From an uncultured Bacteroidota bacterium (lineage in GTDB: Bacteria > Bacteroidota > Bacteroidia > Chitinophagales > Chitinophagaceae): 48,671 nucleotides of DNA. The stretch covers positions 1-48,671 of the forward strand of contig CAMLGR010000015.1 of NCBI GenBank assembly GCA_946479615.1, given 5' to 3'. The position numbers and the translations under genes were made by a program. Under the pieces are notes generated by a model. That model was not told the DNA's origin. It saw only the letters and a program-made list of their open reading frames with translations, and ran no database searches. Positions 6,332 to 25,322 of this stretch are shown piece after piece. The stretch's first letter is position 1. Each line of letters starts with the position of its first letter.

Positions 6332-6383
6332 AAGGTTGCCAAAAGTAGAAAGAAAGTATGAACCGGGGTCTGAAATCAAATGT

Positions 6384-6558
6384 CTGAACCATGATTTTAA
6401 GGATTAGGGGGATTTAGGGGAAATGAAAGAGGCTGATTATTTTATTTCTGCCGGGAAGACGGTAAGACGGAAAGGAGTAGATCGTTTTGCTAATACTCAT
6501 CTTTCCGGCACACTTTCCTGAAAATCCCCTAATCCTTAAAATCATGGTTCAGACAGCC
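6384..6558. repeat. nested palindromic repeat (two families)
   Basis: Outer arms of about 33 bp begin TGTCTGAACCATGATTTTAA on the left (from 6384) and read as its reverse complement on the right (to 6558), with one extra G. Inside, from about 6451, lies a second palindrome with GCCGGGAAGACGGTAAGACG on one side and CTTTCCGGC on the other. Relatives of the inner element are at 25350 and 37302. It separates divergent genes, so it is not a simple terminator. Confidence 0.75.
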
Positions 6559-6617: not shown

Positions 6618-9600
6618 ATGGCGTATACCCCTACCAGTAAAGTAAGAATTGTAACGGCAGCGGCCCTGTTCGATGGTCATGATGCGGCGATCAATGTCAT
6701 GCGGCGGATCATGCAAAGCAAGGGCGCGGAGATCATTCACTTAGGGCATAACCGTTCGGTCAAAGAAATCGTGGAAACGGCGATAGAAGAGGATGTGCAG
6801 GGTATTGCCATTACCAGTTACCAGGGCGGGCACGTAGAGTTTTTCAAATACATGAAAGACCTGTTGACGGAGAATGGCTGCGGTCATATTAAAATATTTG
6901 GTGGCGGCGGCGGCACCATTCTGCCCGAAGAAATTGAAGAATTGCACCAGTATGGTATTACCCGCATTTACTCACCTGATGACGGCCGTCACATGGGGCT
7001 GGAAGGAATGATAGAAGATGTGATTGCGAAATCGGCAGATTCAACGCTCAGCATCCAGGCCCCCTCTAAATCTGCCCCGGAGGGAGAGACTTCCGAAAAG
7101 TCTGTAAATGGAGAGAAGCGTTATGTTTTAGGAGAGTGGAAAGATGTTAAAAGGATTGCAAAGGCGATATCGTTGGCTGAAAATGGCGAGCCATATAAAT
7201 TTTTGTTTACTAATAAAGCAATAAACGGACGTGAATTTTTCGAAACATCCGATAAATCTTATTATAAAATATTAAAAGAGTTTGCCCTCAGCCATAGAAG
7301 GAAATCCACAGAAGCAGAAGATTTTCTATGGCAACAATTAAGAGATAAACAGGTGGATGGGATTAAATTCAGAAGACAACATATTATTGATAAATACATA
7401 GCAGATTTCGTTTCACTGAAAAACAGGTTAATTATCGAAGTAGATGGCAGTATACATCAATTACCGGATAACCTTGTCAGCGATCAGCAACGTACCGAAA
7501 GATTAAATGAACTCGGGTTTAACGTATTGCGCTTTACAAACGATGAGGTATTGCATAAAACAGAAAGCGTAATCACTTCCATAAAGAAAAAATTTCACGA
7601 ATTATCAGCATCTTCGGAAGTCTCCCCCGTAGGGGGAGATTTAGAGGGGGCCGAAGAGCCCGTTGTTCTCGGTATCACCGGTACCGGTGGCGCCGGAAAA
7701 TCATCCGTTACCGATGAGATCGTGCGCAGGTTCCTTACCAACTTCAGGGATAAAACCATTGCGGTCATTTCTGTCGATCCTTCCAAAAAGAAAACAGGTG
7801 GCGCCTTGCTGGGTGACCGCATACGAATGAATGCTATTTCGCATCCGCGGGCATATATGCGTTCACTGGCTACCCGGGAAAGTGATAAGGCATTGAGTGA
7901 ATATGTGCAGGAAGCGATCGATATATGTAAAGACGCGGAATTTGATTTTATTATCCTGGAATCGGCCGGTGTAGGGCAAAGCGATGCTTCCATTCTCGAT
8001 TATTGCGATATCAGTATGTATGTGATGACGCCGGAATACGGCGCGGCATCGCAACTGGAAAAGATCAATATGCTCGATTATGCCGATCTTATCTGTATCA
8101 ATAAATTTGATAAATCCGGTGCGCTCGATGCGCTTGCTGATGTAAAAAAACAATACAAGCGGAATCATTTATTATTTACCGCCAAAGACAGTGATCTTCC
8201 TGTTATCGGTACGGTGGCCAGCAAATTCAATGATGATGGCATCAATCATTTATTTGAATTATTGCTTAAAAAGATCATCGAAAAAAAGCAGGTAAGTTTT
8301 GGGGAGTATCATTTTTCCGAAACGGCAAAAATGTCGCAGGCGATTATACCCAGTAGCCGGGTGCGATATCTTTCCGAAATCACGGCCGGTAACCGCGGCT
8401 ATGATAAACTGGTAAAAGAACAGGCGGCCATTGCTTCCAGATTGTACCAGTTGCAGGGCGCTTTAAATGTCATCACATCTTCGGGAGATGCCACAGACAA
8501 ATTGCAGGAAGCATTGCAGAAGCAGATTGAGTTTTTTACCGAACAATTAACTCCTGTCAGCCGTAAACTACTCACCAACTGGGAAGAGAAACTAAAAGAA
8601 TACCAGAAAGATTTTTATGAATATACGGTAAGGGATAAGGTCATCAAACAACCGATGACATCCCAAAGCCTGAGTGGAACAAGAATACCTAAAGTCGTCT
8701 TACCCAAATTCAGGGACTGGGGTGATATTCTCCAATGGCAGGCGCAGGAGAACGTACCGGGTCATTTCCCATTTACAGCCGGTGTGTTCCCATTGAAAAG
8801 AGAAGGAGAAGATCCTACACGGATGTTTGCCGGTGAAGGTGCACCCGAACGAACCAATAAACGCTTTCACTATGTAAGTACGGATCAGCCGGCCAAACGT
8901 TTATCAACTGCGTTCGACAGTGTTACTTTATATGGAGAAGATCCCGATCATCGTCCCGATATATTTGGAAAGATTGGCAATAGCGGCGTGAGCATTGCTA
9001 CTGTTGATGATGCTAAAAAACTATACAGCGGTTTTGATCTTTGCGATCCCAAGACATCTGTATCCATGACCATTAATGGTCCGGCGCCCATGCTTCTTGC
9101 TTTCTTTATGAATGCAGCCATCGATCAGCAATGTGAGAAATGGATAGAAGCGAATGGTCAATGGGCAATGGTCAATGAGGCATACGCTAAAAAATTTGGT
9201 ACTACAAAAAAACCGGTATATTTCGATTCGTCAGTTTCCGGTTCATCAAGGGAAAATCTTCCTCCCGGCAATAATGGGCTGGGCTTAAAACTTTTGGGTC
9301 TTTCCGGGGATGAAATATTGCCAGTTGATGCCTATGAACAATGCAAACAGGCGGCTTTGCAACAGGTGCGCGGAACCGTGCAGGCCGATATTTTAAAAGA
9401 AGACCAGGCGCAGAATACCTGCATCTTCTCTACCGAGTTTGCGCTTAAACTCATGGGTGATGTACAGGAATACTTTATTCAAAATAAGGTCCGCAATTTT
9501 TATAGTGTATCGATCAGCGGTTATCATATTGCAGAAGCCGGTGCGAATCCTATCACCCAACTGGCGTTTACGCTGGCGAATGGATTTACCTATGTGGAAT

Positions 9601-10469
9601 ATTACCTCAGCCGTGGAATGAACATCGATGATTTCGCTCCCAATCTTTCCTTTTTCTTCAGTAATGGAATGGATCCTGAATACAGCGTGATCGGCAGGGT
9701 GGCAAGAAGGATCTGGGCCAAGGCGATGAAATATAAATACAACGCGAATAAAAGAAGCCAGATGCTGAAATATCATATTCAGACCTCCGGCAGAAGTTTA
9801 CACGCCCAGGAAATTGATTTCAATGATATCAGGACAACGTTGCAGGCATTATATGCGATCTATGATAATTGCAATTCACTTCACACCAATGCCTACGATG
9901 AAGCGATCACTACGCCTACGGAAGAAAGTGTAAGGCGCGCCATGGCCATCCAGTTGATCATTAACCGTGAATTGGGTACTGCCAAAACAGAAAACTTTAT
10001 CCAGGGATCTTTTGCGATAGAAGAATTAACCAACCTTGTGGAAGAAGCAGTACTTGCTGAATTTGACCGGCTCACGGAAAGAGGCGGTGTATTGGGTGCC
10101 ATGGAACGTATGTACCAGCGGAATAAGATACAGGAAGAAAGCCTCTACTATGAACACCAGAAACATACAGGTGAATTACCCTTGATCGGAGTAAATACAT
10201 TTTTGAATAAAAAAGGAAGTCCTACTGTTATCCCCGGCGAAGTGATCCGCAGTACTATGGAAGAAAAAGAACAACAGATCCATAACCTGCATTCCTTTTG
10301 GGCAAGAAATGAAAACAGGTCAGTTGAAATGCTCAACAGGTTACGATCCGTTGCTATCAATAACGGCAACCTTTTTGCTGAATTAATGGAAACCGTTAAA
10401 TACTGTTCGCTGGGCCAGATCACGCATGCTTTATATGAAGTAGGCGGACAATACCGCAGGAATATGTAA
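6618..10469 (+). CDS. icmF: fused isobutyryl-CoA-type mutase IcmF with inserted nuclease domain
   Basis: A protein of about 1283 residues from ATG 6618; the open frame extends to a TTG at 6597. Order: B12-binding domain ([10 protein letters not shown] with the cobalt-ligand His), a linker holding a foreign DUF559 domain, MeaB-like G domain ([12 protein letters not shown] near residue 355, [11 protein letters not shown]), then the large acyl-CoA mutase domain ending GGQYRRNM as in other Bacteroidota IcmF proteins. IcmF interconverts branched and linear acyl-CoAs such as isobutyryl- and butyryl-CoA using adenosylcobalamin; the G domain loads and guards the cofactor. Usual length is around 1100, so this copy is roughly 190 residues too long, matching the insert described separately. 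The catalytic domains look intact and the frame is open throughout, so the enzyme is probably still made. Confidence 0.95.
7058..7652 (+). mobile_element. DUF559 nuclease-domain insertion with inverted-repeat ends inside icmF
   Basis: Arms at 7058-7097 and 7613-7652 are inverted repeats matching at 35 of 40 positions, both ending in GGCC outward (left GGCCCCCTCTAAATCT, right AGATTTAGAGGGGGCC). Between them, in frame with icmF, is a complete DUF559/Vsr-like endonuclease domain: [57 protein letters not shown]. The Asp of ADF and the E-V-D triad of the PD-(D/E)XK fold are kept. The core is visibly more AT-rich than icmF around it. One caveat: [13 protein letters not shown], just inside the left arm, resembles a normal IcmF linker helix, so the left arm may be a separate repeat copy and the mobile part may start near 7190. 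Confidence 0.75.
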
Positions 10470-23020: not shown

Positions 23021-23160
23021 CTCTGTGGCCCTCTGTGTCTCCTCTGCGGCTCTCTGTGTATAACTCCTGAAGTAAGATTTCTGATTAAAGCCTTATTTAG
23101 AACCTTTCTTACAAGAATTATACACAGAGAGCCGCAGAGGAGACACAGAGGGCCACGGAG
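23021..23160. repeat. CTCTGTGG long inverted repeat between convergent genes
   Basis: Arms of about 45 bp, nearly perfect: left starts CTCTGTGGCCCTCTGTGTCT at 23021, right ends with its near-complement at 23160. The loop is about 45 nt. It starts two bases after the DUF72 stop and ends three bases before the umuC-like stop, so it probably acts as a bidirectional terminator as well as being a dispersed repeat. Confidence 0.85.
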
Positions 23161-23162
23161 AG

Positions 23163-24506
23163 CTAATGTATTTCGAAGAGTTCCTCCCATCTTGTAGTGT
23201 AGCGCTGGCTTCGTAACTCCTGTCTCATCTTCCAATCCCGCGTAGTGCCGGAGGCTGCAAACTTCAATACATCATCCCGCTGACTGAAATTGATATTGTC
23301 GATCATATCCATCAATTTCTTTTCTGAATTTTTCATTTCCGTATTGAACAGGTTTCCCTGGATAGACATATCGGGTACAATCCCGCTCAACATCACCCCC
23401 GCTTTTTTATATAGCTTATTCTTTTCAAATAGTTCATCCACCAGCGCCACGGCCGGTTTGATCAGTTCATTGGTAAAAGAGGTCGCCTGTGGTAAAGTCG
23501 TATAACTGCTATGCGTGGCACCGCGGTTGAAACTGGCGTTATGATCCTGTTCCTTCGAAACAATAAATATACTGATCGTACTTGCTGCGCCACGTTGGCG
23601 ACGTAACTTTTCTGCCGCCCTCGACGTGTAGGTCGCTACCGCTTCTTTGATATCATTGATATTACCAACAGGGCTGCCAAACATACGCGTAGTCATGATC
23701 ATTTTTTTATTCACGAGTTCTTCTTCCATTTCCCGGGAAGCAATGCCTTTGAGTTCGCGTATCAACCGGGCGCCGACTACTCCTCCTAAATGTTTGGAGG
23801 CAAATTCTTCACTTACATTTCTCAATTGCAGGGCGTCATAAATACCCCACAGGTTTTTTAATTTTTCAGCATACTGCCATCCGATACCCCAGATATCGCC
23901 GGCAGGTGTTTGTTGAAGTGCATTAATAATGCGGTCTTCTGTATCCAGTACTGTTACACAGCCCGTAACTTTTTTATCTTTTTTTGAAAACCGGTTGGCA
24001 AGTTTGGCCAGCACCTTACTGGGCGCTACGCCAACGGAAACTTTAATACCTGTCCATTGTTCTACAGTCTCACGTATTTCACGGGCAACCGCCCGCAGAT
24101 CAGTACCAGGAAAAATGCTGAGATCGACGAACGCTTCATCAACGGAATAGACTTCTACATTTTTCTTACCCAGCATCACGCGCAGTGTTTCCATCACGCG
24201 CCAGCTCAGATCACCATATAAATTATAATTGGAAGAGAATACTGCTATTCCATGTTTTTCGATCAGGGGTTTGGCCTGGAAATAAGGACCGGCCATAGGT
24301 ATGCCGATTTTTTTGGCTTCATCGCTGCGGGAAACGATACAGCCATCATTATTACTTAATACAACAACAGGTTTGTGATCGAGATGGGGCTTGAATAACC
24401 GTTCGCAGGAACAATAAAAATTATTGCAATCAACAATCGCATACCATTTGGCGGCTTCCACCGGCGGAGACGGTGCATCGATAGTATGGATATCAGCAGC
24501 GATCAT
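23163..24506 (-). CDS. Y-family DNA polymerase, UmuC-like
   Basis: About 447 residues from the ATG at 24506 (MIAADIH); a longer frame starts at 24530. Palm motifs are complete: YAIVDCNNFYCSCERLF and VEVYSVDEAFVDLS carry the catalytic acidic residues. A helix-hairpin-helix region follows (GDIWGIGWQYAEKL), then the little-finger domain and a UmuC C-terminal part (SGIVPDMSIQGNLF). It performs error-prone translesion synthesis. Its start overlaps the end of the small DUF559-like gene by 14 nt, and a UmuD-like gene lies just upstream, forming an SOS mutagenesis-type operon. Confidence 0.92.
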   Translation of the reverse strand: MIAADIHTIDAPSPPVEAAKWYAIVDCNNFYCSCERLFKPHLDHKPVVVLSNNDGCIVSRSDEAKKIGIPMAGPYFQAKPLIEKHGIAVFSSNYNLYGDLSWRVMETLRVMLGKKNVEVYSVDEAFVDLSIFPGTDLRAVAREIRETVEQWTGIKVSVGVAPSKVLAKLANRFSKKDKKVTGCVTVLDTEDRIINALQQTPAGDIWGIGWQYAEKLKNLWGIYDALQLRNVSEEFASKHLGGVVGARLIRELKGIASREMEEELVNKKMIMTTRMFGSPVGNINDIKEAVATYTSRAAEKLRRQRGAASTISIFIVSKEQDHNASFNRGATHSSYTTLPQATSFTNELIKPAVALVDELFEKNKLYKKAGVMLSGIVPDMSIQGNLFNTEMKNSEKKLMDMIDNINFSQRDDVLKFAASGTTRDWKMRQELRSQRYTTRWEELFEIH

Positions 24507-24852
24507 GTATAAATTTTGTAATGGTGGCAAGCGCAGTCTCCGGTTGCCGTATCAGTTCGGTTTGTGATAAGTGAAGTGTTTTGATCCCCATTGCTTCCAT
24601 CATGTTTTGCCGTTCTGTGTTTACAATAACTTCTTCTTTATCATTACTTATTTCGATGGCGAGTTTTAATTCGCAACAAAAGAAATCCAGGGTATAAATA
24701 CTGACAGGATATTTTCTTTTGAATTTACAGCCGCCAGGTTTTGTTTTCAGGTAGTCCGCGACTATTGTTTCTGCAGTCATGGTATTGTATGATTTTATTC
24801 TTCGTTCAGATAATACAGGACTACTCATATAAAACAATTCCGGTTCCATCAC
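24493..24852 (-). CDS. small DUF559-like protein in the umuDC-like operon
   Basis: A protein of 119 residues. The layout matches DUF559/Vsr-like nuclease folds: GCKFKRKYPVSIYTLDFFC, then LKLAIEISND, ERQNMMEAMGIKTLHLSQTEL. The Asp of LDFF and Glu of AIEIS remain, but the usual E-V-D-G is changed to E-I-S-N, so nuclease activity is doubtful. It starts 38 nt after the UmuD-like stop and overlaps the UmuC-like start, so it is a true member of the operon. Several ATGs are possible (24852, 24849, 24825). It may bind damaged or single-stranded DNA (inference). Confidence 0.7.
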   Translation of the reverse strand: MMEPELFYMSSPVLSERRIKSYNTMTAETIVADYLKTKPGGCKFKRKYPVSIYTLDFFCCELKLAIEISNDKEEVIVNTERQNMMEAMGIKTLHLSQTELIRQPETALATITKFIHDRC

Positions 24853-24890: not shown

Positions 24891-25322
24891 TTAACAGGGA
24901 TGAATAACATAGGTGACAACTCCCCATACGGTGAAATCGCTGAACTCGGCCAGGTTAATGGAGCGGTAGCGATTATTTTCCGGTATCAGAAAAGCGGAGG
25001 AAAAATTTTTGTGAAACCGGCGCACGAGCAATTCGCCATTCAATACGGCTACAATAATTTTTCCTTCGGCCATTTTCAGGGAACGATCGACGATCAATAC
25101 ATCATTATCAAAGATCCCGGCCTCGCGCATGGCATCTCCTTTCATGCGAAAAAAATAAGTAGCGGGTTTGTTGCGGATCAATTCTTCGTTCAGATCAATC
25201 CCCCGTTCCATAAAATCATCGGCGGCGGCGCCAAAGCCTGTGGCATTGGCGGTCTTTACCTGTTGTTGTGTAAACTGTTTGAAGCCTTTATAGGCCGCGC
25301 CATAAAATTCTTCTCCTTCCAT
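24891..25322 (-). CDS. UmuD/LexA-like (S24) protein with catalytic residues replaced
   Basis: A protein of 143 residues that aligns end to end with UmuD: ATGFGAAADDFMERGIDLNE parallels the UmuD cleavage-site region, then ATYFFRMKGDAMREAGI, DVLIVDRSL and LNGELLVRRF. In active UmuD the nucleophile is the Ser of GDSM and the base is the first Lys of VKKL. Here they are Ala64 and Arg101, at the same 37-residue spacing. The cleavage-site Cys is also Thr. So it should not cleave itself. There is no HTH domain. It probably acts as a fixed partner or accessory of the adjacent UmuC-like polymerase. Confidence 0.88.
   Translation of the reverse strand: MEGEEFYGAAYKGFKQFTQQQVKTANATGFGAAADDFMERGIDLNEELIRNKPATYFFRMKGDAMREAGIFDNDVLIVDRSLKMAEGKIIVAVLNGELLVRRFHKNFSSAFLIPENNRYRSINLAEFSDFTVWGVVTYVIHPC

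What the first reader, a model, noticed from the sequence alone, without database searches (positions are those of the whole stretch)
7058..7652. Nuclease (DUF559) domain with inverted-repeat ends lodged in frame inside icmF
Seen: an intact DUF559 PD-(D/E)XK-type domain in the linker between the B12 and G domains, arms matching 35 of 40, AT-rich core, frame open, catalytic parts of IcmF intact, protein about 190 residues over usual length. There are no intein splice motifs (no N-terminal Cys/Ser block, no HN-C end), so it would stay in the protein. Inference: a selfish element made of a Vsr-like nuclease plus GGCCCCCTCTAAATCT ends that survives by entering linkers of housekeeping genes in frame; the nuclease might drive its spread by cutting empty sites, as homing endonucleases do.
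Basis: partly seen in the sequence, partly recalled or inferred. Interest (0 to 1): 0.9.

Follow-up and report, generated by a model that had tools for sequence, protein, structure and literature searches.

The report
Nuclease element inside housekeeping genes
A small DNA-cutting enzyme flanked by mirror-image repeats sits in frame inside a bacterial metabolic gene, and its relatives sit the same way inside many other enzymes, which points to a kind of mobile DNA that lives inside working proteins.

Summary
In detail: icmF (6618-10469) carries an intact DUF559 nuclease domain in frame, with inverted arms matching 35 of 40. It is not an ancestral IcmF domain: at least 6 of 130 family genomes with icmF have it there, and on an icmF tree 8 filled copies need 7 changes. 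Related DUF559 domains sit in frame in LeuRS (two sites), MetRS, MetH, AroC, CinA, adenine deaminase, IspG and others. Inverted, mostly C-rich arms flank 62 of 104 DUF559 domains against 1 of 515 control segments, and 7 of 10 checked outside Bacteroidota. Arm sequence tracks nuclease sequence (Mantel r 0.46, 0 of 2000 permutations). One genome holds two copies, 97.7% identical over 484 nt, in otherwise unrelated loci. I read it as a mobile element: hairpin-like arms plus a Vsr/homing-endonuclease-like nuclease that stays in the host protein. Corrections: a native linker helix lies between left arm and nuclease, and the gain is about 135-165 residues, not 190. That the nuclease drives movement is inferred; no cleavage, target duplication or exact empty site was shown.

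The parts
6618..10469 (+). icmF (fused isobutyryl-CoA mutase) host ORF, 1283 aa, open across the insert
   Evidence: Pfam; NCBIfam IcmF; aligns to PDB 4xc6 at residues 5-150, 341-852 and 909-1283
7058..7097 (+). left arm, read in frame as [13 protein letters not shown]; matches the right arm 35 of 40 (52 nt at 81% if extended to 7109)
7128..7187 (+). native IcmF linker helix [20 protein letters not shown], enclosed between the arms
   Evidence: present in insert-free IcmFs; coordinates
7263..7601 (+). DUF559 nuclease domain (residues 216-328) with conserved E, RQ, D and ExDGxxH residues
   Evidence: Pfam; conservation; model pLDDT 85.8; coordinates
7613..7652 (-). right arm (inverted), read in frame as [13 protein letters not shown]; folds as a hairpin (z -1.9)

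Best explanation
It is one copy of a family of small mobile elements: a DUF559 (Vsr/EDxHD-like) nuclease gene bounded by mostly C-rich, often hairpin-forming inverted arms that can be read through without stops. Copies are tolerated in loops and linkers of essential or metabolic enzymes, where the nuclease stays as an extra domain, and just upstream of genes, where the right arm becomes the N-terminus of the next protein. Shown by sequence: patchy presence at a constant position, many host genes, a recent within-genome copy, arm-nuclease co-variation, purifying selection on the nuclease. Inferred: the nuclease nicks or cuts DNA at its cognate arms or at the insert-free allele, and repair copies the element. 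In icmF this would spread allele to allele by gene conversion, taking the helix between the arms along.
Against: No nuclease activity, target-site duplication or exact empty site was shown; the nearest empty site (Shinella L226 vs Sinorhizobium L225) is too diverged. 42 of 104 DUF559 have no arm pair at 28 or more, and 5% of mismatched pairs reach 28. Among the 7 filled icmF read at DNA level two are at chance (L094 22, L110 18). 3 of 10 plasmid-borne and 9 of 10 further Bacteroidota loci have chance-level or weak arms. The arm patterns were made from DUF559 loci of the same genomes and the counts include the arms of the elements themselves, so one search is partly circular. G044 (29 arms) and G050 (16) have no detected DUF559. 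Genomes are related, so p-values are too small. A PD-(D/E)XK nuclease alone does not join strands. In-gene and standalone copies largely separate in the tree, so jumps between the two states look rare.
Confidence: 0.7

Rival explanations
1. The arms are ordinary REP or TIR palindromes moved by HUH transposases (RAYT/TIRYT, Y1_Tnp), and DUF559 is a passenger between two of them.
For: Y1_Tnp is in 107 of 147 genomes. PMC3733652 describes RAYT-like genes flanked by TIRs sharing GGGGWSAS (section 16 read), which the arm tail GGGGTGAG fits. G044 and G050 have arms and Y1_Tnp but no detected DUF559.
Against: Type A arms do not track Y1_Tnp (p 0.09 overall, 1.0 among DUF559 genomes, 0.36 among the others) but track DUF559 among Y1_Tnp-free genomes (8 of 11 vs 3 of 29). 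Of 20 Y1_Tnp loci I picked from 13 arm-bearing genomes none is flanked by DUF559-type arms, one has a single type A motif within 1 kb, and several have hairpins of their own. Arm sequence follows nuclease sequence.
Confidence: 0.13
2. The filled alleles spread only by ordinary horizontal transfer and homologous recombination of icmF, leuS and so on; the nuclease plays no part in its own spread and serves another role (for example Vsr-like mismatch repair).
For: The helix between the arms appears to travel with the cassette in icmF (small numbers). The Caulobacter DUF559 protein VsrA is proposed as a Vsr-type repair enzyme (PMC12907096, passages read).
Against: Recombination of alleles does not make a second copy in unrelated loci or put related domains into a dozen genes; nor does it explain arm-nuclease co-variation.
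Confidence: 0.14
3. An ancestral accessory domain of IcmF, inherited vertically and lost in many lineages.
For: The IcmF copies found have it in the same linker.
Against: At least 6 of 130 family genomes, 7 changes for 8 filled rows, related copies in other proteins, closest PDB IcmF without it.
Confidence: 0.03

Closest known systems
Rickettsia palindromic elements (RPE) and intragenic REPs
   Same: Palindromic DNA inserted in frame in genes that likely encode functional proteins (PMC3733652, passages read); arm-like peptides without DUF559 also occur at icmF and LeuRS sites (recognised by eye).
   Different: Those passages describe palindrome-encoded stretches of 20-30, in clusters 43-82 residues; here a conserved nuclease domain is carried.
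REPtrons / RAYT with REPs and REPINs; RIME of Rhizobiaceae
   Same: An enzyme gene flanked by hairpin repeats that are also scattered alone in the genome; the Sinorhizobium element is a double-hairpin unit, DUF559, and a second such unit (likeness to RIME is recalled, not tested).
   Different: HUH tyrosine transposase there, Vsr-like nuclease here; none of 20 Y1_Tnp loci is flanked by DUF559-type arms.
EDxHD homing endonucleases (I-Bth0305I)
   Different: I-Bth0305I is described as a long multidomain group I intron enzyme (PMC3943268, passages); here no intron was found and hairpin arms flank the domain.
Inteins and free-standing homing endonuclease genes
   Same: Nuclease inside or beside conserved genes, at recurring positions.
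   Different: No splicing residues at the borders, so the domain should remain in the protein; inverted arms bound it.

Membership tests
Intein | Splicing motifs at the borders (N-terminal Cys/Ser block, C-terminal HN then C/S/T) | tested here: not met
   Read directly: borders are [10 protein letters not shown]... and ...[14 protein letters not shown]; no intein family in the Pfam scan
DUF559 / PD-(D/E)XK Vsr-like nuclease | Profile match, fold and conserved acidic residues | tested here: met
EDxHD homing endonuclease | Same catalytic fold | tested here: met
EDxHD homing endonuclease | Site-specific cleavage of the insert-free allele | not testable with these tools
   needs a cleavage assay
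EDxHD homing endonuclease | Carried in a group I intron or intein | tested here: not met
   frame open through the insert; Rfam at gathering threshold finds only a tRNA in the window
REPtron / RAYT | HUH tyrosine transposase (Y1_Tnp) | tested here: not met
   the encoded domain is DUF559; no Y1_Tnp in the Pfam scan of the ORF
REP/REPIN-like repeat | Hairpin units dispersed as many copies in the genome | tested here: inconclusive
   window genome not held; in relatives type A arms reach 29 per genome and type B 10; folding clear for L067 (z -3.2), moderate for the window right arm, absent for its left arm
RPE-type in-frame palindromic insert | In-frame insertion in a working gene | tested here: met
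   host domains on both sides; only LeuRS match in 20 of 21 filled genomes; that the proteins work is inferred
Insertion sequence / MITE | Target-site duplication | tested here: inconclusive
   no close empty site found; the G069 copies show no obvious duplication; Shinella/Sinorhizobium comparison too diverged

The most novel reading that the evidence does not exclude
DUF559 nucleases are the mobilisers of a phylum-spanning class of C-rich hairpin repeats (type A/B arms of Bacteroidota, double-hairpin units of Rhizobiaceae, CCCCCTAAATCCCCC repeats of cyanobacteria): a nuclease-based counterpart of RAYT/REPIN. One lineage has specialised in living in frame, unspliced, inside essential proteins and spreads by homing-like conversion.
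Probability: 0.4. Interest if true: 0.92.

Novelty: categorically new. Interest (0 to 1): 0.86.

Why it matters
If right, a DNA-cutting selfish element persists by becoming an extra domain of essential enzymes, without splicing, which widens what counts as a mobile element and may explain puzzling DUF559 fusions (such as the methyltransferase fusion left open in PMC1829167, passage read). It offers a testable mobiliser for abundant palindromic repeats, and warns that some annotated multidomain enzymes hold parasitic domains.

Tried and rejected
Ancestral IcmF domain: rejected. RAYT as the mobiliser: not supported. GIY-YIG genes as another partner of arms in genomes without a strong DUF559: 6 genomes searched, 16 matches, 12 loci fetched; none of the 12 holds a strict type A arm; G044 and G050 stay unexplained. 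Exact borders from an empty site: tried with Sinorhizobium/Shinella, too diverged. Linker-type test on the icmF tree: suggestive only; my pattern left 12 of 60 linkers unclassified, the association on the other 48 (p 0.005) ignores kinship, and 3 to 5 independent pairs are too few. Phage records: 2 hits, not pursued. Rfam: only a tRNA.

Literature: ten full-text searches, in open-licence PMC papers only. 14 papers name DUF559; I read passages of three, and those passages describe no arms; one of them does place a DUF559 gene in the EDxHD homing endonuclease family and one mentions DUF559 fusions. Further passages: PMC3943268, PMC3733652 (and its section 16). 'Not in print' holds only for these searches.

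Limits of the counts. The 100 loci were picked long frames first from the listed matches, so 64 long-ORF of 105 domains is not a prevalence. One search leaves out one of 105 domains (the degenerate window ORF near 24.5 kb). One search uses the 57 elements with score 28 or more and both arms near the domain (36 in long ORFs). One search uses 60 rows: the best-matching loci of two searches plus filled ones, duplicates L164 and L179 dropped, loci without a readable linker absent; the 5 'arms only' rows were labelled by eye, and the four I folded out have chance-level complementarity. Of 130 icmF genomes I opened only some; several truncated frames were not opened, hence 'at least 6'. 'Strong' DUF559 (best E up to 1e-20) is my cut; with any match it is 46 of 76 against 11 of 71. 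The reversed-pattern control gave 2 hits against 455 for type A but 13 against 27 for type B, so type B counts are weak. In one search I chose 15 pairs: 7 computable (one of them with dS 2.5, one with very few changes), 7 saturated, 1 without synonymous change. L093, first thought to be IspG, is not matched by that family; IspG rests on L103 and proteins.

Full report
WHAT IS THERE. The ORF at 6618-10469 is a fused isobutyryl-CoA mutase (IcmF; NCBIfam equivalog): B12-binding, MeaB-like G domain and mutase domain are present, with DUF559 at residues 220-325. Its best PDB match, the IcmF 4xc6, aligns at 5-150, 341-852 and 909-1283 and not between 150 and 341. The arms at 7058-7097 and 7613-7652 match 35 of 40; DUF559 is 34% GC, the rest of the gene 44-50%.

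Insert-free IcmFs have a linker helix of the form LGEVKDVRKIARQITNAENG. In the window it lies at residues 171-190, between the left arm and DUF559. So the left arm is not the border of the nuclease; the right arm is next to it. Counted the same way, the linker is 233 aa here and 69-98 aa in 27 insert-free relatives.

NOT ANCESTRAL. In 147 genomes of the same family, icmF was found in 130. Four have insert-length frames (G018, G145, G005, G004) and two contig-truncated ones carry DUF559 (G001, G043), so at least 6 of 130; some truncated frames were not opened. In 59 genomes of the genus of G001, 54 have icmF; G186 (L198) and G001 are filled, while G166 (1220 aa) and G196 (1207 aa) have longish frames I did not open. 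On a tree of 60 IcmF rows with the linker left out (47 empty, 8 filled, 5 arms only by eye), 'filled' needs 7 changes and is no more clustered than chance (148 of 500 shuffles as low). Filled copies pair with empty sisters: window with L155, L060 with L203, L104 with L180, L110 with L171. L060 and L203 are 86% and 80% identical in the DNA on either side.

OTHER HOSTS. A search with the insert alone, among proteins of 0.55-1.75 times the IcmF length, returned 629 proteins, 120 listed; besides IcmF the list includes methionine synthase, methionyl- and leucyl-type tRNA synthetases, adenine deaminase, IspG and acyl-CoA synthetase, with two copies in one protein in P0017 and P0062. In genome loci NCBIfam confirmed AroC, CinA, MetH, ArgB, ThrB, HisA, MurU, adenine deaminase and IspG, the 10 proteins of that call all matching the DUF559 model too, and LeuRS, MetRS and MetH. 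LeuRS was found in 142 of 147 genomes and is filled in 21; in 20 of the 21 it is the only LeuRS match, so the filled enzyme presumably works, with the caveat of incomplete genomes. At LeuRS site 1 the inserts lie in one short loop...GAEIxF^...^VYTTRPDTIFG, without loss of the conserved flanking residues.

THE ARMS. Around 104 DUF559 domains, 62 have an inverted-arm score of 28 or more, against 1 of 515 control segments from the same loci; at 40 or more it is 40 of 104 against 0 of 515. A harder control, pairing left flanks with right flanks of other elements, has its 95% point at 28, 99% at 42 and maximum at 50 (n 516), as expected if arms resemble each other between elements. Many arms are hairpins in themselves, for example CCTCACCCCTAACCCCTCTCC-AAA-GGAGAGGGG (L067, z -3.2). 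The filled icmF copies score 55 (window), 45, 43, 36, 29, 22 and 18, the last two being chance level. Arm-like sequence without DUF559 was seen by eye in 4 of the 30 closest icmF loci of the family set (L157, L158, L173, L174), in L202 and at LeuRS site 2 (for example L239, L092, L241, L252); in the four icmF cases the two sides are not complementary above chance. L198 has three tandem left arms and three tandem right arms, so the two sides seem to change in concert.

ARMS GO WITH THE NUCLEASE. Type A arms occur in 44 of 65 genomes with a strong DUF559 and in 13 of 82 without; four or more arms in 26 of 65 and 3 of 82; type B in 10 of 65 and 1 of 82. This test is partly circular, since the patterns were drawn from DUF559 loci of these genomes and the elements' own arms are counted; and type B's reversed control is high (13 hits against 27). 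Y1_Tnp (RAYT) does not predict type A arms, and DUF559 predicts them in Y1_Tnp-free genomes (8 of 11 against 3 of 29). Of 20 Y1_Tnp loci fetched from arm-bearing genomes none is flanked by DUF559-type arms. Arm similarity follows nuclease identity: r 0.46 over 57 elements, 0.33 between different host labels, 0.77 at LeuRS site 1, 0 of 2000 permutations each; in 11 same-genome pairs the nucleases are 35-49% identical and arm similarity is 0.21-0.66. Against: G044 (29 arms) and G050 (16) have no detected DUF559, and genomes are not independent.

MOBILITY. In genome G069 two 8.3-kb loci share 484 nt at 97.7% and no other match; the shared part ends at the end of the right arm, while on the left it starts inside the left arm, which is present but more diverged in both. 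In both, the DUF559 stop overlaps an ATG from which the right arm is read as MNNNSPSTSAATSSPSGAGG and continues into the next gene, which in one case reads like ThrB (by comparison with L106). A similar reading of the arm appears in N-terminal fusions to ArgB, ThrB, HisA and MurU.

BREADTH. Of 10 DUF559 loci taken from the 38 plasmid records with a match, 7 have arm pairs scoring 34-208, in Sphingomonas, Picosynechococcus, Deinococcus, Azospirillum, Pseudanabaena and Sinorhizobium; 3 are at chance level. Mismatched controls (n 90) have their 95% point at 37.6, so the Picosynechococcus pair (34) is borderline, and their maximum of 80 exceeds several of the true pairs. The Sinorhizobium element is two double-hairpin units around DUF559, and Shinella has the flanking genes without it. 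Of 10 further Bacteroidota loci, only one (L003, 41) scored above chance.

MECHANISM. Shown by sequence: in-frame residence, mobility, arm-nuclease pairing, selection on the nuclease. Inferred: nicking or cutting at arms or at the empty allele followed by repair copying. The icmF linker helix seems to move with the cassette (L060 resembles the window there but its empty sister L203 in the flanks), as expected of gene conversion; numbers are small.

KNOWN OR NEW. In-frame palindromes without a nuclease (RPE, intragenic REPs), RAYT/REP systems and EDxHD homing endonucleases are known, and DUF559 has been linked to the EDxHD family in print. I found no description of a nuclease with inverted arms residing unspliced in essential genes in ten searches of open-licence papers, which do not cover most subscription journals. 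Each family considered fails or leaves open at least one defining feature, hence the rating; a reader who weighs the shared parts more could call it a new variant.

Noticed in passing
window 24493-24852 (-): A second, degenerate DUF559-like ORF (at best 34% identical to the set, DGxxH motif lost) lies between what read like a Y-family polymerase (23163-24530) and a LexA/UmuD-like gene (24891-25322; both names by reading, not searched); arm score around it at chance.
   Followed up: partly
window 6381-6555: A separate 45-nt inverted repeat (87%, 85 nt between) just upstream of icmF, with GGATTAGGGGGATTTAGGGG in one arm; the arm does not fold by itself.
   Followed up: partly
window 23021-23160: A 68-nt-armed palindrome (84% complementary, 4 nt between) rich in CTCTGTG between two genes; no Rfam match.
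   Followed up: no
L198 (G186) icmF linker: Left arm tandemly triplicated and right arm tandemly triplicated in the same gene.
   Followed up: partly
genomes G044, G050: 29 and 16 type A arms with no detected DUF559: another partner enzyme, a lost one, or an incomplete genome.
   Followed up: partly
G018:C262 and G018:C265: One genome yields two LeuRS fragments, both with DUF559 at site 1 but from different nuclease clades: two genes or a mixed bin.
   Followed up: no
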